In this document: positions 570-43,290 of the stretch, one piece after another
How the letters are laid out: every line of letters begins with the position of its first letter
Position numbering within the stretch: the first letter of the stretch is position 1
Assembly: GCA_001953115.1 (NCBI GenBank)
Contig: LSSL01001967.1
Location: 1 to 44,615, forward strand
Origin: Smittium mucronatum
Taxonomy: Eukaryota > Kickxellomycota > Harpellomycetes > Harpellales > Legeriomycetaceae
DNA length: 44,615 bases
Reading direction: 5' to 3'
Notes under the pieces: model-generated
What the model saw: the letters and a program-made list of their open reading frames with translations, nothing else
What the model was told of the DNA's origin: nothing
Databases searched by the model: none
Made by a program: the position numbers and the translations under genes

Positions 570-2000
570 ATTTTTTGATATATAATGAAAGATTAATATA
601 TAAAATATTAATAAAATTTCAAATAAATGAAGAAAAGAATTTCTTTGGTTAATTTAATCAGTTTTATTTGATATATATTTTAAAATAAAAATAATCACAA
701 AATTACTAAGGTAAATGGAAAGGAAAAACATTTTATTTCATCATTTATTTAATAGCTAAATAGCAAAAATTTTAATGAAAGTACTGTATTAACGGTGATG
801 TTAAACACTAAAAATTAAAAATCTCATCAAATAAAACCATGGGTTTAATAGATAAACTATCGGTAAAATAAAATGTAAACTTATGTTTAAAATTCAAGTG
901 TCAAATAAAACTAAAAAATTATAACAATGAAATGATAAGATACTTGTGTAATTTTATTAAAAATAAAAATCATAAATATCACTTAGCAGCAGTGATAAAC
1001 TCTTATTGAAGCAACATGAGGTGCTTTACAGTAATATAATCGTAAATTTTATTAATCCATAAAAATTTTCATCAAAAAAATAAAAAAAATAAAAATGGTT
1101 TATATACAGAAAAATCCAACAATAACACTTTTAAATCACATTTTTCAACATTTTACCGCGTTTTAATATAAAAAATTTGGCTATGTATTTTTTTATTTTG
1201 GGGTCCAATTATTTAACATTAGAAAAATAATATAAAATTTTAGTTTTATAAAATTAAAAAAAAGCAATATTTCAATATTTCAATATATTAACACATTCAT
1301 ATTATGTCATAAAAAAAAGAAAACTTAGACCAAAAAAATTCATATGATTTACCATATAAGAAATTTGATTTGATTTGAATTAAATATCAAAAATATTGTT
1401 TATACACGTTGTTATATTTAAAAAAATTTAAAAACTTACTTGCATAAACTCACGGGTATTTTTTCCCTAAAAAATAGTTAATATGATATTTTTTCTGAAA
1501 TAAAAAATCAAAGTTCCAGGAAAAACACTTAAATATTCATAATAATTTTTGGAAATTTTATCTGTAAGACAATTAGATCAAATTTTCTATTATTATTTAT
1601 TAAATAAAAAAAAAAATTGAGTTTATAAGTTTTATTTATTTAGAATAACTATATTTATAATAAAGTATTAGGTTTTTTAATAAAAAGAGCATCGATCAAA
1701 ATGTGTTAACAATAAAGGAGATGAAAAAAACTTATGACCTTTATTTTACTCAAAAAAAAATCAATCGACTAAATAAAAAAGCCATGTTTCAGGAATATAT
1801 GCGTGTTTGGGCGAGCATGATGATTAGTAAAATTAATAATAAAACAATAATAATAAAATAAAAATAGTAAAATAAAAGTTTGGATTTATAAACAAGACAA
1901 GTTTTAAAAAATTTAAGATAAAAGTCTTAAGAACTGGAGTTTATCACTTATTATTATTAGAGGTTTATTAAGAACAAATGATGTTAAGATTCTAAAATGG

Positions 2001-2021
2001 TAATATATATATATATATATA
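2001..2021. repeat. TA dinucleotide repeat
   Basis: About ten TA units lie in AT-rich intergenic DNA. This is an ordinary microsatellite. Confidence 0.85.
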
Positions 2022-3353
2022 ATAACGCTGAAATATAATAAAATCAACTATAGATTATAATTAAGAATTTTTTTTCCAACATTCTCAATTGGCATTATTA
2101 TTATTATTACATCAAATCGGGGGATAGTAGCAGATCTCGAAACATATCCAAATCTGATTAAAGAAAATCTAAACTTTAAACAGCCAAATAGCAAAATACT
2201 AACAACACAATACTAATATTTGTGTTATTTTGGAATATTTTAAAGACTAGAAATCTCTAGAAAAAATATTAAAATTTTTATAAATAATTCAATTTTTTTG
2301 TAGGGTGTAAAATCAAATGATTTCCTATGAAATATAGTCAAATTTGTACAGAAAGACTAGAATTTGACTTTAAATAATTTTTTTCTCACAGTACAACTTT
2401 GGAAAATTAATTTTATTGATACAGGAATCCATAATTATATACACATCCATTTAATTTTTAAACCCAGAGTTAGTTTATATTAAAATAATATACATTATAA
2501 AAAATCAAATAAAAATATTTTTCGGCTAATGTCCAATTATATTATTATTTCTAAATCAAGGGGGAAAGATCTTATTTATTATTCATCCATATTTCAAACT
2601 AGCGATTTTTATATCATGGAAGAGAAAGTTTTCATGGACTACTAAAAAAAAACATAGAATATATTACACAGCTCTTTAACAACATTATTCGATAAATTTG
2701 GAGTTTTGGATTCAACAAGCAGGGATAAGTGTGGGCTACGAATTTTTATCGATACTCCTTAAAACAAAAAGATTTAAGGCTCTTATACTATTTTCGTAAA
2801 TCCCTGTAAATAAGTAAAGTTCAATCCCTAGAATGATTTAAAAATATGAAAACATATTATAATGGCAACGGGTTTAAAAAATGCTATCACGAATTTTGGT
2901 AAACAAACACCAGTTTTTCCAAGCAAGCTTACGCATTAAGTGGAAAAAAAAAAGCTGATGAATTGAATAAAAATTATAATCAATATATCTATATCTGTGA
3001 TTATTATCTATCGAATCCAATTAAATGGTTTTGCATGGGAAAAAAGTTCTTTGCACCCCCCGAAGCAGTTTAAACGAGGTATGAAACTGCTAGAGTGGCA
3101 GAGAGGAGTTGGGTGACAATTCTTTTTGATTTTTTTTTCTTTTTTTAAATTGGGGTTTATACCTTTTTATTAAATTGAAAATAATTATCCATTAAAAATA
3201 AGTACATAAGTATATTTATAGGACATTCTTCACATGAAAATATTCTTGCTTTCCGAGTAGATAACTTTTTCTAGCAATCAAATTAAAAGTCCATGTCAAT
3301 TATAAAAAATCCACATTCCTTACGCATAATCTTTATTCATTGATGATTATATT

Positions 3354-3892
3354 TTATTTTGATTCATGCTGTGTTAAAGTTCCTAATTAAAAAAAGATAA
3401 AGGTGAAATATGTAGTAATAAATTTATGGTACTTTAAAAAATAATTTGGAATTCAATTTCTATAGTATACCTGTTTTATTTGACTCTTTTTTATAATACT
3501 TTTGGTATACGGAAGAAAAAGTTATCTGATTGTTAAGCAGATCAAAAATTCCAACTCCTTTTCTAGTTTCAATGGTTGAAATAGTGTATTTCTCTCTCTT
3601 AAGCTTATACATATGCCACGCATTTATTAATGTGAATTTGCAATCGGTGTAACCATTAATATTTACTGGATCTGAAACTTTTACTTATGGATAAACCTAC
3701 TCGGTTTTTTGTGGGCACGAACCGCAGCTGTTCAATAAATCCATGAACACAAAACAATTTTCTTGATTTATACTTTATTAGTTCAATTTTCCTTACCTTT
3801 TCCCACTTGCTTACTTATCATGATCGTCATATTTTGGGCTTTCTTTTACCTGAGCTAGCGAAAACATCAAGCGTACACCAAAGCTCAACCAT
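3354..3892 (-). CDS. putative three-exon gene, unknown 90-aa protein
   Basis: Proposed exons on the minus strand are 3892-3850, 3671-3471 and 3382-3354, with GT-AG introns of 178 and 88 nt. All joints are phase-consistent: exon 1 ends with one extra base, which completes a GAT codon with exon 2, and exon 2 ends with one extra base, which completes GGA with exon 3. The middle exon is 67 codons without a stop, notable in DNA this AT-rich, and has balanced composition (for example GYTDCKFTLINAWHMYKL). The predicted protein starts MVELWCTLDVF and ends TQHESK. I recognise no domain, signal peptide or membrane segment. It lies 238 bp downstream of the HSP60 stop on the same strand. It could instead be a decayed transposon fragment or a chance open frame. 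RNA evidence would decide. Confidence 0.35.
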
Positions 3893-4057
3893 GATGATAA
3901 AATAGGACAAACAATAAGGGGCAAATAAAAAAAATAGAGAAATCGGTTTCGAAAATCGTCAAAAACTTAAAATAAACTAATATAAATGAAGAGTTTTAAA
4001 CTAAATTGATGATGTATAAAAGTGTAAGTTTCAGTAAAGAAAAGAATTGAAATAAAC

Positions 4058-4063
4058 TTTATT
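4058..4063 (-). terminator. AATAAA polyadenylation signal of HSP60
   Basis: AATAAA on the minus strand lies about 68 nt beyond the HSP60 stop codon, a normal distance for a cleavage/polyadenylation signal. This is a motif match only. Confidence 0.55.
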
Positions 4064-4130
4064 GTGAGAAAGGAAAATTAAAGGTGAAATATATTATAAT
4101 TAGATGGATGATAGAGATTGAAAATTCTTC

Positions 4131-7156
<3,026 letters not shown>

Positions 7157-8216: not shown

Positions 8217-8287
8217 TGCGTCAGCCGGGAGTCGAACCCGGGCCAATTGCTTGGAAGGCAACTATTCTACCGCTATACTACTAACGC
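8217..8287 (-). tRNA. tRNA-Gly (anticodon UCC)
   Basis: A 71-nt cloverleaf without intron. The acceptor GCGTTAG pairs with CTGACGC (two wobble or AT pairs) and the discriminator is A. Anticodon stem GTTGC/GCAAT carries loop CTTCCAA, giving anticodon UCC. The T-arm CCGGG/CCCGG has loop TTCGACT and contains a good box B. Its 5' end lies 2 nt after the 3' end of tRNA-Asn, and the T-run beyond it suggests it is second in a dicistronic transcript. Confidence 0.97.
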
Positions 8288-8289
8288 CT

Positions 8290-8363
8290 CGCTCCCACCT
8301 AGGCTTGAACTAGGAACCTCCTGATTAACAGTCAGACGCGCTAACCAATTGCGCCATGGAAGC
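8290..8363 (-). tRNA. tRNA-Asn (anticodon GUU)
   Basis: A 74-nt cloverleaf without intron. The acceptor GCTTCCA pairs with TGGGAGC and the discriminator is G, usual for tRNA-Asn. The D-stem is GCGC/GCGC, the anticodon loop CTGTTAA gives GUU, and the T-arm CCTAG/CTAGG has loop TTCAAGC. It lies immediately upstream of tRNA-Gly on the same strand. Confidence 0.97.
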
Positions 8364-31530: not shown

Positions 31531-34500
31531 TTCTCAATTTGTCAAAATATTTTATTGTTTTGAAATTGAACTAAATTTGCGGTAAACACGGCTTGTACAT
31601 TTTTAACGAATTATCACCGATTTTTTGTATTTAATTGATTTATGCATATATATATTTTAAATACAGCATTTTATTGCTCATGACTTCTAATATATTTAGT
31701 TGCATTTATAAGATTTTGAAAAATTTATAAATAAAAATATATATCTCCATATTCAAATTTTTTATCACCTGCAGCTAATATTAGCGCTTTATTTAAATAT
31801 TTATGGAGTTTAACAGAAATTAGTAGTTTATGTAATTGATCATTATAAAAATTTTGAGATAAAAATATTTTCCAATTGTCATCAAAACGGTGTTAGTTCT
31901 ATTTTATTCAAGGAAATTATTAGTGTAAAATTACCTCGTTAAAACTAATTCTTCGGAAGTGATTTTTATTTTTTAATTATGAGGGGGGCCATACATTTTC
32001 CTAATTTTCATCTATCTCAGTCAAATTAGTAATTATTTTTAGAACTATTAATAATATCTAATTGAATATTTGTTTTTTTAAAGTTGAGTTAAACCTATAA
32101 AATCAGTTATTTGTTTTTTTTTTGTATAAAGATTGGTAAATTCATACAAGTTTTATTATTATTTTTTGAAACAATTTTCAAGTGGAGTTTAAATTGAAAT
32201 CTTATTCTCTGGGAACCCATCATGTTTTTTTACGGATAAATCCAAATAAAGATCGAAATTTTTTCTAATTGATGATTTTAGATTTTTAATCAATCTGAAT
32301 TTACTTTTAATGAAAAATGAGATTTTGAGTTTAAAAATTGGTATATCTTATTTCTCAGTGCGTGGAACAATAATTAATTACTGTGACCTTATTTTCGGAA
32401 TTCTAATAAAAATTGAAAATTTAGGAGCCTAATATGCTATAAAATTCATTATTTTGAAGGATTTTTCATCATTCTTAAAGTTATATTTTATTTTTTCGAA
32501 TTATATTAAAATTATTTTTCTTTACCTATGAATTATAACTAGATTTAAATATAAAAAAACACTTTTTTCATCTAAAAACACCACTAAAAACAGAGTTACT
32601 ATATCTTCCGGTATATAAGTAACATATTAATGTAGAATTTGAGAGCTTTTAAAAATATTCAAAAGAATTTTTCGTGCTTATCACTATTCAGGTTCAATTT
32701 ATAACAAGCCTTTCCTTTAGAACTGAATCAAATCCAACTTTTAATTCATTTTTTTATACTTAATTAAAAACTGCTCCAAACTTAAAAGATTTTATAGAAC
32801 TTTATGATTCTTTTTTCTCTCAAGTAGGTAAAATATGAGTATATTATAATATATTCTGTCTCAATCTCCTTAACATATAACAACCTTTTGATCTCACAAG
32901 ACTATTTTATTCCTTCATATGTTTTTGATAACTCGTCTGTGAGAGATATATATGTTATTTTTTCCAAGAATCCAGAGTTATTTTTGTATTAATTGTAATT
33001 TTTTAGCAATCCTTTAAGATTTTATTCCTCTATTTTTAAAGCTGAATCACAACCTGAAGAATTCTTGCTTTTGTAGCTACATTTTGATAAGTTGTATCAT
33101 TTGATATAAAAAAAATCTACCAAGAGTCACATATTCTTCATCTTGCGCTCAATAGCCTTTATTTAGGAACAATTATTAATTCTTTTTCTTGATAATTCCA
33201 TCTTTATAAAATATGACCCAAAGATATATTATTTTTATTGATTGATTATATTAAAAGCGAATAATTAATTGTATGGGATATTTATTTATTTCAGCTATTT
33301 GTTTCTATTTTAAATTTTAAACATTTTAAGGAGTAATATTTTACTTTAAAGTAAAAATCAAATGTTTTTTATACAAATATATTCATAGGTTAATGTTAAA
33401 TACATATGCATCGATTTAGCTTATATTATAGAAAGTGATATCCAATCGATTTTCAGATATTTTTTAAAGATCTTTTCATATACTTGCGGTAGAAAATGTG
33501 CGGTAAAAATATAATCTGCCGATTTCCCCCCAAATTCGTGGATTCTTTCGAATTCTTTCGATTTTTTAATAATTTTCTTGAATCTTAGCATTTAACCTTT
33601 TTCACATAGTTTTAATAAAAAAAGTGATAGAAAAATATTTTAATAATAAGTTTTATTTACATATCCCTATTTCTTTTTATAAAAAATTTCAAAATAAATA
33701 CTCTGCGCCAAATAAGATATTTCAATTTGAAAATTGCAGCTACAAATTGATCTTAAACAAACGGAAAACTAAAATTTTACTTTGAAATATATTCATCACC
33801 CGAAAAATATAGATATTTATTACATTTTTTCGGAAAATCACATTTATAAAAATTTAATTTCAAAATATGGTTTTTATAGGGGTTTTCATTGTTAGAGAAA
33901 AATTATTTCATTTTTGGGGGGATTTTTTTTTCATTGTTAAAAACGCATAATTTCATTTTTGGAAACTATTATTACAGCTAGGGCATGTTCAATTAATTTA
34001 TTTTGTGGAGAATTAATTAATGATTAATTAGACAAATTTTCAAACAAATTAATTGTTTTTTTGAAAAATTTTAGAGAGCTTTATTGGGCTTTAGAGCTAT
34101 TTTAAAAAAAAATTCTAAAAATTGGTAAAAAAATGTATTCCAATTTGTCAAACTTAGTCTAAAGCAAAAAAATATCAAAAATTTTATTCTTTGGGATTGG
34201 ATAATCAAAATAGACTATTGTTCACCGTGATTCAACTTTTTTGATCTTTTTTATGAAAAATAGTCCTATAGTCTAAAAAAAATTTTTTTTTTCTTTCATT
34301 CATTTTGAAAGTTATTGTAACCAAAACGATATTCTAATTTAACCCGAATATCATTAGAAGAAAATTCATACGATGAGACTTCAAAATACGGTAAAAAAGC
34401 AAATTCGTAAAATTTGGTGAATCAAATAAACATATAAAACGAACTAATAAGATTTGCTGTTAATGGTATGTGATGGCTTATATAGTTTACTGGATGTACG

Positions 34501-35898
34501 TAAAGCATTTAATAAAAAAAATTAAAATAGTTTTGGGCCACAAAAAACGAAAATTAAATGGTCTTTATTAGATAAATAGGGAAAATTACATGTTTTTTTC
34601 GGGTTCCAGGTAGATAAGAGCTCCATTATTAACAAAATATTTTGTAATTATTGTTAAATAACAGTATATAATCAAAATAAAAGGACATAAGAAAATTTTA
34701 CTGAGTTATTCTTCTAAAGATTGGAGTTTAAGATAAATTTACTACAGATGCTGCGCATAATATGTAATATCAAGTAACACGGATGAATTTTTTAATGAAG
34801 TTGCTTATTTATCTATTTTTGAATTTTTTTAAAAAAACTAATGCTGAATTTGATCAAAAAATTTATACGTTTTTATTATCAATTGTTTTTCTGTTGATAA
34901 TTCAGTGAACCTATTTTATGAAAAGAATTATCATTTAAACACTGGCTTTTGTATTTTTGTTTTATTTGCCATGTTTATAAAAAAAAATTCGATTTCATTC
35001 GTGATAAAATAAAAAACTCACTATCATTTTCAAGTAACATAAAAAAATTCTTTTCTTGGGTCCTAATTCACAGCTCAGCCATTTCAATATTGAAAGTTAC
35101 TATATAAATTCCAATTTAGTCATAGAAAATATCATTAAAAGTATTTTAATATAAAATATTAAAGCACAACCTTCTCTATCTTTTCTAGCATTAATTGATA
35201 TTATATGATTTTTAAAATTCTCTAACAAAAACTCTAACCAATATATACATTCTCAAAAAAAAGCTCTCCTCAGTTCTAAATATTTTAATTTATATAAATA
35301 GTGATGTTTTCTAAATATGGTTCTAGTTGAAAAATTTTAAATAGGATTTCTGCCTCGTAAAAAGTTGGTAGTATAATCGCAATTTATAGCTATTTAAAAA
35401 TTTAATTAATTCGTATATTATATCTTAAATATTTTAAAGGATTTTTTTATTTTAACTTATTTTCTGAATACTACATATTTTATCCGGCTCTAACTTTCAC
35501 TAATTTAACATTTCTTAGGTATTTCCATTATCAAAATCTTCATTCTAGTATACTATATAAAATTAATTTTTGATTATTATCAGCCCGTCTATCTACCATT
35601 TTAATTAATTTCAAAATTTATGCTTTTTTTTCTCAAAATTGTATTAACTAATGTTTTTTTTTTTTTTTAATAAACCACAAATTAAGTTAAACCATATATT
35701 TCTTAAAAAATTGATTTTCTTACTCAAACCATTTATATTTAATAAATTAAATCATGCAAAGATACAAATATTAAAAAAATTTAATATTGTCAACTGGTAT
35801 CTATTTTTATTTTAAACATTTCTATCATAATTGGACTAGATTGATGTTTTACAAAAATAACTTTCCTGAAAAAGATAAAAATTTATAAATAAAATTGC

Positions 35899-35911
35899 GG
35901 GGGGGGGGGGG
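35899..35911. repeat. G13 homopolymer inside the hAT element
   Basis: Thirteen consecutive G on the plus strand in AT-rich non-coding DNA of the hAT element. It is the longest G/C run in the window. Confidence 0.9.
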
Positions 35912-36300
35912 ATATAAATTTCCATTATAGCTATACTTTTGATATATATTTTTAGGTTATCTAAATGGGATCTTTAAATATTATTTACATATTCCAAATA
36001 AATTCTATTAAATTTTTTAAACTTTAATGAACATAATCTTGATTATTTTTTCTCATTTTTAATCGTATTATTTCTTGTATAGAATAAAATTTAAAAAAAT
36101 TTACTCCTCAATTCTTCACTAAAAGTATCAAACTAACCATTAAGAAATATACTGTCAATTTTTTTTTAGTTTTTTTTTAGTTTAGAATTAGATAAATTCA
36201 AATTAATTGAAGAGCTATAGATTTTAAGATAAATTCTTTTTTTTTTAAAAAAAAACAATGATTAGAATCATAAATAAATATCTTAGTGAATTAAGTATGA

Positions 36301-38215
36301 TCTAGTTTTTAATATTCTGTCTACATCTTATCGGAAAAATTAGATCTGGGTTTTTTATAAAAAGGTCAGCCTCACTGAATCTTCTTTCAACCTCGATAGA
36401 TTAGAGGATATTTAAAAAAAGTTTTTATATTTTTTCTAAGGATTCTGGCCTGGTCCCAGTATGTTCAAATAGCACCATCTGGCTTCTTATATCGCTGAAT
36501 ACCTTGAATGTTGCTGTTCCCTATAATATTTTCATTGTTTTTTTCACAATAAAAATTTCAAGCTCTTTTTTTTTTTTTGAAATATTGTTTATTTTAAAAT
36601 ATTCTTGTATACCATTTTTTTCTTCTACAACTTCATCGCTAGTTTCATTATTAGCTATTAGACCATTATATATATCTAATTCTGTTTGTATAATGTTGTA
36701 TATACTTTCAGTCTTGAATATTTAATCCTTTGAAAAAACTATTAAGCTTTATTGATTCGAGTCATCTAAATACAAAATCAAGCTATCTAGGCTTTAATTT
36801 CTTCTCTACTCTACGCTATTCCTTATTGGATTGTAAATCATATTCCCAAAATATAAATTTTATGATCCATGTTTTTAATAATAAATTCGAATACCTTTGA
36901 TGATTTCAAAATTTCAGAATCATCCCTGAAAAGTGCTTGAGATCATATTTAAATTAAATCAATTATATCCGAAAGTTCCTTAATAAACGAAAATTATATT
37001 CCATTAGGGAAAAATAATATGGAATCTAAATCCATAAGCGTTAATTTGAGCGTGCTTTGTAACATCAAAAGTGTTTTTATCATATTAAATATGGAGCTCC
37101 ATCTCTTTTTTGAACCAATAACCAAATTTTTTCCCCAAGAGCTCTTAAGTTATTTTTTTGCAAAATATAATTTTTAAGAGGCGACCTCTTAAATATTTTT
37201 GCGAACATTCTAATTTTATGGGTTGTATTATTGAATTAAGGAAGGGTGATTTTATTTTTCGAGGTCAATTTTTTTATTTGGAATAATCTTGGATCTTTTT
37301 CAAATTCTTCATCGCTGCTCAATTCGCTCTCATTTTCAGTAAAATTATTATTTATAGCATCAAAGTTCTGGGTAAATTGATGGTTTTTTAATAATACACC
37401 ATATGAATCTTCCCTCTGGTGGATTTTTGAAAATTTAGTACCACGAGTATCCGTTTCCAAAATATTATTTTTTATAACACATCAACTACCCCTAAGTTAA
37501 TTCCATGAGCAAAACACATTTGATGGTAAATTCATGCAAGTGTTAATATTTTTATCATAATCAAAGCGCCGTCAGTAAAAAAGGAAACTAAAAGTTTTTT
37601 AAATATTATTCCATAAGCAACTAGTTTATTTTCGACAATTTAGACCGCCTTATTTGCGTACATAGAATCCTTTATTCTTAACATAGCGAGTCCTATAACT
37701 TTTTTTTCTTTATTGTGTAGATTAATCCCCGTGTACCTTCTGTTTCTTATTGAATTCCATTCATTTAGAGTTATTATAATCAGCCTCTCAGGCTTATTAT
37801 TTTCTTAGTAAATTATTTTTTACAAGTCTAATTTATCACCATACTCATCAAAATTTTTTTTGATTCCTTTCTCTTTCTTTGGTATTTTATAACCTTGTGA
37901 AATCCCTCCATTTCTAATTTACTCACTGTTAGTAAGGGTAGAAAAAGATATTCTGTCCAAGGCAACCAGCTTTGCAGAAAATTTTTGTGGATATCTTATT
38001 TATTTTTTTTCGAAAAATGCCCCAAGTTTATTTAGAGGTTTGGTAATGACTTCTGATTTTTCATCCTTAAAAAAACCATTATTTTGTGTCATATTGTATC
38101 TGCATGATGTAGTAGCTTGATGAAGTTTAAAATTTTGCTCTCAGTATCTGCATTTAAACATTTTAACGTTTCTATAATGAAACATTAAAATTTTCCAAAC
38201 CTCGGAATTTTTTTC
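36301..38215 (-). pseudogene. hAT transposase, decayed
   Basis: hAT transposases cut and paste DNA with a DDE catalytic core inside an RNase H fold. Reading the minus strand through stops and shifts gives the domains in order. A BED zinc-finger-like start is SEVWKIL...FKCRY, then NFKLHQATTS (about 38205-38085). A linker has FSAKLVALDRISFSTLTNSE (about 37975). The conserved strand is TLNEWNSIRNRRYTGINLH (about 37770-37715). TDGA, with the catalytic Asp, lies near 37575, and CFAHGINLGVVDVL near 37515-37475. Then come SKKRWSSIFNMIKTLLMLQS (about 37115), an acidic spacer, LFEHTGTRPESLEKI (about 36465), and the dimerisation block IEVERRFSEADLFI (about 36400-36360), the counterpart of V-E-A-E-R-A-F-S-x-A-x-L-F. 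Many stops show long inactivity. Confidence 0.88.
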
Positions 38216-38485
38216 AGTTATAGAAATCCAAAAAAAGCTTTTTTCAGAAATTTTTTATCCATAAATTACATTCTGAATGAACTTTTTTGTTTTAAACATA
38301 TTTATCCTTTAGATAATGTATTGAAGATTTAAAATAAATTTTAACTGAGTATTTTTCTGTGTCATAAATTAATCAGCTGCTTAAATATTATACTCTCCGA
38401 TTAAAAATTTTTAAACTTTTTGTGGATAAACTGTTAAAAGAATAAAAAAAGTTCTTACAGAAGAAGTTGCAAGATACAATACGAG

Positions 38486-38512
38486 AATCAAAATCAAAAT
38501 CAAAATCAAAAT
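38486..38512. repeat. AATCAA hexanucleotide repeat
   Basis: About four tandem copies of AATCAA within the hAT element, upstream of its transposase. Confidence 0.85.
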
Positions 38513-39068
38513 TATAAAAAGCATATTAACTTATTATATTTTTATAAAGATTATAAAAAATAGTTTATTACTTTTATATAAATATATTTTCTTCCATTGG
38601 AGCTTTAAAAAATTTTTTTTGAATTTTTTAAACTATCGTGTCTCGATGAAATATTTACCACTTATTTTAACACTTTTAAATAAGTAAATCTCCATAATCA
38701 CATAAACATAAATTTTTTTGTGAAAGAAATTTTACAAAATTTTATTGGAAAGCGATGTTTATATTTTTTTATGAGAGTTTTTTAATCTTTTAAAATCAGT
38801 TTTTACGAAAATTGTATCAAACTTTCCGCCATTAAATAAATTTTAATAAAAATAAATTGTTTTAATTGGGTAAATTTTTTCTATAATAGAAAAAAATTTC
38901 AGAAATACAAGTGTAAACTCAATAAAACTTTCGGTACTAAATAAATTTTACCAATAAAAATATCTAAAAAAGCATGATTAATTGAGACAAGAAAAATGAT
39001 TAATCGATTAATTCTTAATTGGAGAAAAAAAAATTAATCGATTAATCCAAACATGCCCTAATTGCAGT

Positions 39069-39721
39069 ATTGGAGATGTTCATTATCATAGTTGTAGAAA
39101 TTTCCCCAATTTATTTAACGTAATTACTAGATTTCCTGTAGCGACAAATGGGAATGGGATGAAATTTAATAATCGTTTTTTCCTTTATTATATTTTTATT
39201 TTGGTTTTTTCTAGTGTTATAATATTGTAAATAAACTCCCTTCTTTTTTTTTTTTTTTAAAAAAAAACTACTTGATTTGAATAATTCGATGTAATTATTT
39301 TTACAGAAGAAATTTATAATTCAGATCATTCAGTTATATCTTCGGTCTCATATAAAACATCCAAGCTATTAGATGGATTATCATTTGAAGCTGTCAAAAA
39401 GCGCATAAAAAAAATAATCATAAAATAAAAATAAAAATAAAAATAAAATGACAAATAAAATAATTATTACTTTATGAAGAAAGTTCCATTATTTGTTCTC
39501 GTATTTGGTAATTATATTGAGGAATTGGTTTTAGATAGACATTTTTGAAATTATTAAAAAATTGAAGGACCATCATAATTAAATAAGATAATATCTTTTG
39601 ATTTTCGGTGCCCTCAAATTTTGCTATTTTCAATTTTCTGATGGTATATTGAATGGATTTGTTCTTGGTGAAATCATACAAGACAGAAATTCTTTTATAA
39701 AAATAATTGTGGCGAATTATT
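39069..39721. other. internal part of the foldback-like element
   Basis: After the end of the left arm (to about 39134), some 590 bp of spacer lie between the arms. It contains a 69-codon minus-strand frame (39472-39681; Lys/Ile/Gln-rich, for example KIAKFEGTENQKILSYLIMM) with no recognised domain, and an AAAAT simple repeat at 39421-39449. The frame is too AT-biased to call a gene. Confidence 0.45.
39421..39449. repeat. AAAAT simple repeat
   Basis: About five copies of an AAAAT/AAAATA unit in the spacer of the foldback-like element. Confidence 0.8.
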
Positions 39722-39779
39722 CAAATCAAGTGGTAATTATGCTACACAAAGTGGGAAAATTTCTGAAACTATGAAAATA

Positions 39780-40003
39780 TACATCTCCAATCTCTTAATA
39801 TTATGCCTCCAAAAATTTAAAAAAATCCCCACAATCATGAAATAATATATCCCTAAGAATGAAAAAAATATCAGAAAAAAATGTAATAATATGCCTCTAA
39901 AAATGAATTTATGTGTTTTTAACAATGAAAAAAAATCCCCCCAAAGATGTAATTATGTGTCTCTAAAAATGAAAATTGTCACCTCTAAAGATTAAAATCC
40001 CTG
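39780..40003. repeat. degenerate 20-24 bp minisatellite (right arm)
   Basis: About nine units following a pattern near ATGCCTCTAAAAATGAA with a variable A/T tail, for instance at 39798, 39892, 39950 and 39979. It forms the right arm of the foldback-like element; related units in inverted orientation form the left arm at 33877-33978. Confidence 0.7.
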
Positions 40004-42052: not shown

Positions 42053-43290
42053 TTATTCTTTTGGCTCTTCGTTCTTAGTTTCGGCAGGGGCCGCACCCTC
42101 ACCATATTGTTGATCCTCTACTTCTATTAAATAATATAATGTTTTAATGAATATATAGATAAACGTATATATAAGAAAAGCTAACCATTTTGGAGGTCGG
42201 AAGTCCACAAAGTCAAGTTGTCACGGAGCAACTGCATAATCAATGTGCTGTCTTTGTAAGAGTCCTCGTGTAAGTTATCGAGTTCGGCTATAGCCTCATC
42301 GAAAGCTTGTTTAGCAAGATTACAAGCAAGTTCAGGAGAGTTCAAGATTTCATAGTAAAACACTGAAAAGTTGAGGGCAAGACCCAATCTGATGGGGTGG
42401 GTTGGGGCTAATTCTTTATCAGAAATCTCGGAGGCTTTCTTATAAGCGCTAAGAGCGGTGTCAGCAGATTCTTTGCGGAGATCAGCGCTCATGAATTCAG
42501 CGAGATATCTATGGTAATCACCCTTCATTTTGTAGTAGAAGACTTGGGATTCGGGAGTAGATGCTCCTGGGATCAAGTTGGTGTCGATGGTTTCCAAAAT
42601 ATCGTTACATACATCTTGGAGCTCCTTTTCGATGGTTTGTCTGTAAGTTTTAATTAGCTCAGCATGTTGAGTGTTTCCACGCGAAGTCTCCTTGGCCTCG
42701 ATAGAGGTGACTACTCTCCAGGAAGCACGTCTAGAACCAATGACATTTTTGTAAGCAACTGACAACAAATTGCGCTCCTCAATTGTGGGTTCAGAATCAA
42801 GCTATTAGGGCAACAAAAAACGCGATTAGTTATGAAACAAAATAATAACAATAATAATTACCTTGGCAACAGCCTAAAGTCCGGGTAGAAGTGGATAAAA
42901 ACAAGTATAAAAAAAGATGAACATTGAAAAATTGGTAGATAAAACTGACCTTCATATAACAGATCATCTCTAAAAAACAAAAAGAAGAAATATTAAATTA
43001 AATAACTTTTGTTAAATAAAAGAAAATTCAGTACCTTCGTAACGCTCAGCCTGTTCAGAGAGTTTGGACATGTAAACCTATATCAAGGGTGAATAAGATA
43101 GGTAAGGATATGCTAGATTTTTTTTAAATACACATATATGTGTAAATAGTTACCAAAGATTCTCTGTCCAAACCGACCTACATAGCAAAACAAAAAAGTA
43201 AAATCAATAAGATGGTGAAATAAAGAGTGGTAAGCAAGATATACAGTGAAAGTAGTTTACAGTTATTTCGCTTGATGGCATGTTCAACAT
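42053..43290 (-). CDS. 14-3-3 protein, seven exons
   Basis: Dimeric adaptor that binds phosphoserine/threonine motifs in many signalling and metabolic proteins. Exons on the minus strand are 43290-43261, 43177-43154, 43077-43035, 42969-42950, 42873-42862 (12 nt), 42801-42186 and 42123-42053. All introns are GT-AG (83, 76, 65, 76, 60 and 62 nt), and the phases join without error into 271 aa. The assembled N-terminus reads [20 protein letters not shown], then EMICYMKAVAKLDSE, as expected for the dimerisation helices. Phosphopeptide-pocket residues are present: Lys61 and Arg68 in [15 protein letters not shown], Arg141-Tyr142 in [10 protein letters not shown], Asn187 in [11 protein letters not shown]. 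The C-terminus TLWTSDLQ is followed by an acidic tail ending KNEEPKE. The first ATG (43290) is chosen; a second in-frame ATG at 43281 is possible. Exon 1, being non-conserved, is the least certain. Confidence 0.95.

What the first reader, a model, noticed from the sequence alone, without database searches (positions are those of the whole stretch)
33877..40003. Nested transposons: hAT inserted into one arm of an older inverted-repeat element
The inverted similarity between the left arm and the right arm (about 39722-40003) stops exactly at 33978, where the hAT TIR begins, and resumes just after the hAT right end at 39060 (ATTGGAGATGT...ATAGTT...AGAAATTT). This dates two events in order and gives base-level hAT boundaries that do not depend on the TIR or TSD call. 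The host element itself has YAGGG termini and arms made of degenerate 20-24 bp units, and would be about 1.04 kb. It may be an undescribed non-autonomous, minisatellite-armed foldback family possibly related to hAT.
Basis: seen in the sequence. Interest (0 to 1): 0.8.

Follow-up and report, generated by a model that had tools for sequence, protein, structure and literature searches.

The report
hAT inside a foldback Tc1-mariner relic
In an AT-rich gut-fungus genome, a decayed hAT jumping gene and a small retroposon have landed inside an older, many-copy transposon whose long mirror-image arms are built of 22-base repeats; that older element looks like a helper-dependent relative of Tc1/mariner transposons rather than of hAT.

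Summary
Window 33979-39060 is a decayed hAT element (TIR TAGGGCATGTT, 8-bp TSD ATTACAGC/ATTGCAGT) inside the left arm of an older inverted-repeat element, 33877-40003. Without the hAT, the inverted diagonal crosses the join (0 of 500 shuffles reach any of three arm scores), and 13 of 13 paralogues examined have that site uninterrupted. A second insertion was missed: 39130-39266 is a SINE-like retroposon, so the host is about 900 bp here, not 1.04 kb.

Kinship of the host with hAT is not supported. Host-family pieces lie on at least 42 contigs. Its ends read CAGGGG, mostly with TTA/TAA outside; no clear 8-bp TSD was found; the arms are 22-bp units. Three longer elements share its ends and arms around one interior; that interior, read in C2539, holds broken DDE_3 (Tc1/mariner/IS630) pieces with DD34E-like spacing. 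I read the host as a non-autonomous, foldback-type derivative of a Tc1/mariner-like family. TA duplication is likely but unproven. Foldback-like arms on a Tc1/mariner-like element have a precedent (Mcmar). New variant of a known kind; the nesting is ordinary.

The parts
33877..33978 (.). Outer part of the left arm of the host foldback element (TAGGGG terminus; its last 8 bp are one copy of the hAT TSD)
   Evidence: Inverted match to the right arm, score 121, 0 of 500 shuffles reach it
33971..33978 (+). hAT target-site duplication, left copy ATTACAGC
   Evidence: Present once at the same site in paralogues, e.g. CCTGTAAT on the other strand in C400 and C2675
33979..39060 (-). Decayed hAT element, 5082 bp; TIR TAGGGCATGTT at both ends; transposase remnants on the - strand
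   Evidence: relatives C305, C449, C641 at 76-83% identity; zf-BED and Dimer_Tnp_hAT hits in C305 and C449, below the curated cut-offs
39061..39068 (+). hAT target-site duplication, right copy ATTGCAGT (6 of 8 identical to the left copy)
39069..39129 (.). Inner part of the left arm of the host element
   Evidence: Inverted match to 39733-39791, 0 of 500 shuffles reach it
39130..39266 (+). 5'-truncated SINE-like retroposon with A-rich tail, inserted in the host's left arm
   Evidence: Absent at this junction in the 13 aligned paralogues; in C1459 query 1-60 and 200-652 lie next to each other; 40 scored matches of 196 candidates, self included; a longer relative in C164 ends in poly(A) with a 12-13-bp TSD
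39267..39721 (.). Conserved core of the host element (39267-39314 and 39687-39734 are its innermost inverted parts)
   Evidence: Matches on 36 contigs, window included (40 of 240 candidates scored; counted); inverted repeat I5
39722..40003 (.). Right arm of the host element, 22-bp degenerate units, CAGGGA terminus
   Evidence: 42 match rows on 31 contigs, self included (40 of 113 candidates scored; counted); 22-bp period

Best explanation
The region is a stack of three mobile elements. The oldest (33877-40003 without the two inserts, about 900 bp) is one copy of a non-autonomous, foldback-type DNA transposon family: two inverted arms of about 280-320 bp in good copies made of degenerate 22-bp units, a conserved core without a long open frame, ends CAGGGGTTTTCATTGTTAG and usually TTA...TAA outside. 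It most likely moved by cut-and-paste with the transposase of a Tc1/mariner/IS630-like (DDE_3) element that shares its ends and arms, with TA as the target duplication. Later a SINE-like retroposon landed at the core/arm junction and a hAT element landed in the left arm with an 8-bp duplication; the order of these two is not resolved. Shown: the nesting, the hAT duplication against uninterrupted paralogues, the family, the shared ends and arms, the DDE_3 pieces in the C2539 relative. Inferred: that this transposase moved the short elements, that TA is a true duplication, and that the 22-bp units serve as transposase-binding or spacing units.
For: Arm statistics and joined alignment. The hAT site is uninterrupted in 13 of 13 paralogues examined; of their 26 arms 24 align with score 48 or more and 2 (5' arms of C88 and C2675) only with 40 and 42. 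Family: arm or core matches on 42 contigs; 46 terminal-pattern matches, 0 for the reversed control, with 13 convergent same-contig pairs of 767-4429 bp (one pair is the longer C2539 element). C2539 (2266 bp) has TTACAGGGG...CCCCTGTAA ends, an inverted match of 423 bp at 96.5% between its two sides, and about 75% identity to the C2665 host-family copy over its outer 207 bp. Its interior gives DDE_3 hits (4.3e-7, above the cut-off; 6.1e-4, below it), with 34 residues between the last D and E. C478 and C1325 carry the same interior at 77% and 75% between the same kind of arms; C478's left arm matches the C2665 copy at 82% over 186 bp. The only two proteins found for the joined pieces are DDE_3 proteins. 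TA stands on both sides in 10 of 17 pairs; background TA frequency in the flanks 0.128.
Against: The C2539 interior does not match the C2665 host core (only arms matched), so no element joining this core to a transposase was found. TTA/TAA is so uniform that it could be part of the TIR; own pairs match no better than mismatched pairs for 2-3 bp. Three pairs that I had first left out (C1459, C518, C1109) do not have TA on both sides: 9 of 13 host pairs without them, 9 of 16 with them. Skipping the TTA/TAA, 8-bp flanks match somewhat better than chance: total 57, reached by 138 of 10,000 shuffled pairings, one of five tests; C1817 alone gives 7 of 8 (ATGTTGAA/ATGTTAAA), while C2539, with clean ends, gives 4 of 8. 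So an 8-bp duplication outside a TTACAGGGG terminus is not wholly excluded. The C2539 transposase is broken; the C478 and C1325 interiors were matched as DNA only, not translated. In the hAT relatives the Pfam hits lie below the curated cut-offs (20.2 and 19.1 against 21.4; 17.0 against 20.6) and the two window pieces sent gave none.
Confidence: 0.8

Rival explanations
1. The host is itself a non-autonomous hAT element (YAGGG ends), moved by hAT transposase.
For: CAGGG/TAGGG ends look hAT-like. Skipping the TTA/TAA, 8-bp flanks match a little better than shuffled pairings (138 of 10,000 reach it; C1817 7 of 8). The hAT family does have short derivatives of about 435-462 bp with 7-of-8 duplications (C2016, C144, C486).
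Against: Directly next to CAGGGG no 8-bp duplication: 5136 of 10,000 shuffled pairings reach the observed total; the C2539 relative with clean ends has 2 of 8 adjacent and 4 of 8 outer. hAT ends read TAGGGCATG and share no arms with the host family: a host-family copy matched only L051 and L061, both the window's own locus, among the 30 loci fetched with hAT queries. The same arms surround a DDE_3-like interior.
Confidence: 0.06
2. The host is a Mutator-like foldback element, as most described foldbacks seem to be, and the DDE_3 elements share or captured its ends.
For: [quoted passage not shown]
Against: No 9-bp duplication: 8784 (adjacent) and 7961 (outer) of 10,000 shuffled pairings reach the observed total. 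Arms, not just tips, are shared with three elements that carry the DDE_3-like interior. No genome-wide search for a MULE transposase within such arms was made.
Confidence: 0.06
3. The arms are an inverted satellite array and not a transposon.
For: 22-bp periodicity.
Against: Interspersed copies on at least 42 contigs with recurring ends, recurring flanks and a conserved core.
Confidence: 0.02

Closest known systems
Mcmar, Tc1/mariner-like element of Meloidogyne chitwoodi (as described in a passage of PMC3169594)
   Same: Tc1/mariner-type element whose TIRs (355 bp) are built of direct repeats and palindromes, likened there to a foldback structure
   Different: Nematode; here the host is a many-copy non-autonomous family with its own core and a uniform 22-bp unit, in a gut fungus
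Galileo (P superfamily; starts of abstracts in listings, PMC4168063 and PMC3573991) and Tetris (suggested Mutator; passages of PMC4079207)
   Same: Long, internally repetitive inverted arms; for Tetris a middle domain without apparent coding capacity
   Different: Other superfamilies; Tetris has 8-10 bp TSDs, the host family here has TA-type flanks and a DDE_3-like partner
Tm1 Mutator/Foldback family of root-knot nematodes (passages of PMC3169594)
   Same: One family holding short non-autonomous and transposase-bearing members with composite TIRs
   Different: Phantom/Mutator-type transposase, 9-bp TSD and a motif of about 14 bp instead of 22 bp
hAT transposons (defining features recalled)
   Same: The insert 33979-39060 has YAGGG TIRs, an 8-bp TSD, and relatives with BED/hAT-dimerisation remnants
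   Different: Decayed; no intact transposase seen

Membership tests
hAT (the insert 33979-39060) | Short TIR of YAGGG type | tested here: met
   TAGGGCATGTT at both ends, 11 identical bases
hAT (the insert 33979-39060) | 8-bp TSD | tested here: met
   Window copy 6 of 8, and the 8 bp stand once in paralogues; relative C305 has ATCACACG on both sides, 8 of 8
hAT (the insert 33979-39060) | hAT transposase domains | tested here: inconclusive
   Dimer_Tnp_hAT 5.3e-4 and 1.1e-3, zf-BED 0.006 in relatives C305 and C449, all below the curated cut-offs; the two window pieces tested gave no hit; one C305 piece found one BED-domain protein at 9.1e-11
hAT (the host element) | 8-bp TSD directly outside the TIR | tested here: not met
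   17 paired ends, adjacent 8 bp: 5136 of 10,000 shuffled pairings reach the observed total. Skipping TTA/TAA: 138 of 10,000, a weak excess led by C1817
Tc1/mariner/IS630 (the host element and its longer relatives) | TA target-site duplication | tested here: inconclusive
   TA on both sides in 10 of 17 pairs (9 of 16 host pairs and C2539), but TIR and TSD cannot be told apart without an orthologous empty site
Tc1/mariner/IS630 (the longer relatives) | DDE_3-type DD34D/E transposase | tested here: met
   C2539: DDE_3 4.3e-7 above cut-off and 6.1e-4 below it, 34 residues between last D and E; same interior by DNA and same arms in C478 and C1325. The frame is broken
Tc1/mariner/IS630 (the host element) | Its own transposase, or proof that a DDE_3 transposase moves it | not testable with these tools
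   The host carries no transposase seen here; mobilisation is inferred from shared ends and arms
Foldback-type elements | Long inverted arms composed of short tandem units around a non-coding core | tested here: met
   22-bp period at lags 22, 44, 66, 88; inverted arms; no open frame of 150 aa or more in 33877-40003
SINE (39130-39266) | A-rich tail, TSD and many dispersed copies | tested here: met
   the TSD was read in the C164 relative, that of the window copy is degenerate
SINE (39130-39266) | Pol III promoter boxes / RNA-gene origin | not tested
   Longer copies read GCCCAGTGGGTACGGAGC, which resembles a tRNA A box from memory only

The most novel reading that the evidence does not exclude
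A Tc1/mariner/IS630-type family in a Harpellales gut fungus evolved foldback arms from a uniform 22-bp unit (about two helical turns), shared by transposase-bearing and short members, so that each arm is a phased array of transposase-binding sites; the short members, with a different core, appear more numerous and may titrate the transposase of the long ones.
Probability: 0.3. Interest if true: 0.55.

Novelty: new variant of a known kind. Interest (0 to 1): 0.4.

Why it matters
Foldback elements can lack a known transposase (Tetris is an example), and most are assigned to Mutator (PMC4079207, passages). Here short foldback copies and longer relatives with the same ends and arms sit in one genome, and the relative that I read carries DDE_3 pieces. 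That makes it possible to ask how repeat-built arms arise and whether the repeat units bind transposase. The nested hAT and SINE-like insertions by themselves are ordinary for a transposon-rich fungal genome.

Tried and rejected
Considered the 3.4-kb DDE_3 element between two host-family arms in C1817 (L032) as the autonomous partner: rejected, because it has its own inverted ends (GGGCAAATTTC...) and sits inside an otherwise ordinary host-family copy. Considered 39130-39266 to be a MITE: rejected for a SINE-like retroposon on the poly(A) tail and the duplication of the C164 relative. The search of solved structures with the DDE_3 pieces found nothing. Paper searches for Smittium or Harpellales with transposon or SINE terms and for foldback with Tc1/mariner terms listed no title or abstract start that describes this family (open-access library only; several listings were capped and most papers not opened; passages of four papers read).

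Rows dropped: one search used 14 paired ends; C1459, C518 and C1109 were left out as poorly preserved, and the C2539 row was one base off.
Full report
SOURCE. The window is the whole of contig C1115 (44,615 bp) of a 73.8-Mb assembly in 2957 contigs, for which no related genomes are held. Its HSP60 open frame (4131-5591, - strand) is 87% identical to a Smittium angustum protein, the best of 7999 scored candidates, so I infer a Harpellales gut fungus.

CHECK OF THE OBSERVATION. The left and right arms are inverted relatives. Tested in three pieces against 39687-40003, the outer left arm (33877-33978), the inner left arm (39069-39129) and the core edge (39267-39314) score 121, 63 and 56; the best of 500 dinucleotide shuffles reached 41, 30 and 36. 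Controls from the hAT left end, the hAT right end, the SINE-like piece and the outer left flank were reached or exceeded by 373, 480, 214 and 35 of 500 shuffles. With both inserts left out, one local alignment runs through the hAT join, with gaps elsewhere. Scored separately, the outer part pairs with 39882-39975 and the inner with 39733-39791, leaving about 90 bp of the right arm, about four units, without partner.

THE hAT INSERTION. Both ends read TAGGGCATGTT (from 33979 and from 39060 on the other strand), next to ATTACAGC and ATTGCAGT. In 13 of 13 paralogues examined the site is uninterrupted: C400 and C2675 read CTCCAATCCTGTAATATTAT where the window reads CTCCAAT-ACTGCAAT-[hAT]-GCTGTAAT-AATAG on the same strand. 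Of the 26 arms, two (5' arms of C88 and C2675) align only weakly. Relatives of the insert lie on C305, C449, C641, C1752 and others at 65-83%. C305 has ATCACACG on both sides. Open frames of C305 and C449 give Dimer_Tnp_hAT (5.3e-4, 1.1e-3) and zf-BED (0.006) hits, all below the curated cut-offs. One C305 piece searched alone found one protein with a BED domain (9.1e-11). The window copy is full of stops, and the two of its pieces sent to Pfam gave no hit.

A SECOND, UNNOTICED INSERTION. 39130-39266 is absent at the same junction in the 13 aligned paralogues; in C1459 the sequences on its two sides are adjacent. It has 40 scored matches of 196 candidates, itself included. A longer relative interrupts the host-family copy on C164: it contains CAATGCCCAGTGGGTACGGAGCC near its start, ends in poly(A), is flanked by ACTTTATGAAGAG (12-13 bp, as the first A may belong to the tail), and has 451 N inside. 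I read the window piece as a 5'-truncated SINE-like retroposon. The host is therefore 900 bp in the window.

THE HOST FAMILY. The right arm gives 42 match rows on 31 contigs (40 of 113 candidates scored); the core search gives 53 rows, of which the core proper lies on 36 contigs (40 of 240 scored); together 42 contigs, window included. The five clearest pairs are 975, 982, 992, 993 and 1003 bp long. A 26-base terminal pattern has 46 matches against 0 for the reversed control; 26 of these ends form 13 convergent same-contig pairs of 767-4429 bp, one of them the longer C2539 element, and the longest with a nested insert. Thirteen oriented copies were aligned with the window copy. Lags 22, 44, 66 and 88 all exceed the shuffle 95% maximum in the window arm and both C2665 arms; in the C2539 arm only lag 22 clearly does.

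FLANKS OF THE HOST FAMILY. They mostly read TTA|CAGGGG...CCCCTG|TAA. With the 17 pairs that I defined, TA stands on both sides in 10 (9 of 16 host pairs and C2539). An earlier count of 9 of 14 had left out C1459, C518 and C1109, none of which has TA on both sides, and had the C2539 row one base off. Directly adjacent 8 and 9 bp match no better than chance (5136 and 8784 of 10,000 shuffled pairings reach the totals). Skipping the TTA/TAA, 9 bp does not (7961), skipping two bases 8 bp does not clearly (1034), but skipping three bases 8 bp does somewhat (138 of 10,000; one of five tests; C1817 7 of 8, the others 4 or fewer). I do not take this for a duplication, as C2539 with clean ends has 4 of 8, but it keeps an 8-bp reading open.

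THE LIKELY PARTNER. C2539 holds a 2266-bp element with the same ends; its two sides match inversely over 423 bp at 96.5% (the match begins about 20 bp outside the left end), and its outer arms are about 75% identical to the C2665 host-family copy over 207 bp. Its minus strand has pieces matching DDE_3: 4.3e-7 (30.3 bits, cut-off 28.6) and 6.1e-4 (20.1 bits, below it); a third piece had no hit; 34 residues separate the last D and E. The pieces are separated by a stop and a frame change. A search with the pieces joined by X found two proteins, both with DDE_3, from the acanthocephalan Pomphorhynchus laevis (4.6e-21 and 7.1e-14). The interior matches 17 places, C2539 included. For two others (C478 and C1325) I fetched both flanks, and all four flanks carry host-type arms. 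C258 also shows a terminal match at a fitting distance. Flanks of the other places were not read, and only C2539 was translated.

MECHANISM. Best supported: the host family moved by cut-and-paste with a transposase of the C2539 type, as its short, non-autonomous, foldback-type derivative; later this copy was struck by a SINE-like retroposon and by a hAT element. The order of those two is open, since neither lies inside the other. The host core is not shared with the C2539 interior, so the exact parent, if any, was not found. The 22-bp units as binding sites are inference.

COMPARISON. Passages of PMC4079207 say most foldbacks seem to be Mutator, with exceptions, and cite Galileo as a foldback-like member of the P superfamily. 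A passage of PMC3169594 describes Mcmar, a Tc1/mariner-like element with 355-bp TIRs of direct repeats and palindromes: the closest precedent. The paper searches listed no description of this family (listings only, most papers not opened). I therefore call it a new variant of a known kind, of moderate interest.

Noticed in passing
L058 1165-1614, L059 1510-1944, L078 about 1124-1585 (C2016, C144, C486): Short elements of about 435-462 bp with the window hAT's ends and 7-of-8 bp duplications: probably non-autonomous hAT derivatives.
   Followed up: partly
L032 about 1316-4750 (C1817): A 3.4-kb element with its own inverted ends and a DDE_3 fragment (3.9e-6, just below the cut-off) lies inside another host-family copy.
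   Followed up: partly
L034 1299-2206 (C1253): A 908-bp insert with GGTTAA-type inverted ends, in A-rich flanks that allow a 9-bp duplication, interrupts another host-family copy.
   Followed up: no
P0121, P0122: The only proteins found for the C2539 DDE_3 pieces are from an acanthocephalan worm; whether this reflects horizontal transfer was not tested.
   Followed up: no
window 9289 (- strand); L036 361, L044 2188 (- strand); a similar stretch at L035 2856: A shared stretch ACACTATTAAGCCCCTAAACCACGG occurs in three places and a variant in a fourth: another dispersed repeat.
   Followed up: no
window 8217-8363: Two tRNA matches on the - strand, two bases apart.
   Followed up: no
L083 365-381 (C478): A second CAGGGG-type end begins about 15 bp after the right end of the C478 element.
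   Followed up: no
L037 2027 and 3130 (C344): The flanks of this host-family copy are themselves near-inverted over about 17 bp (AAAATTTATGTAGATTA / TAATTTACATAAATTTT); unexplained.
   Followed up: no
window 42181-42801: Open frame on the - strand that resembles a 14-3-3 protein (recalled resemblance, not searched).
   Followed up: no
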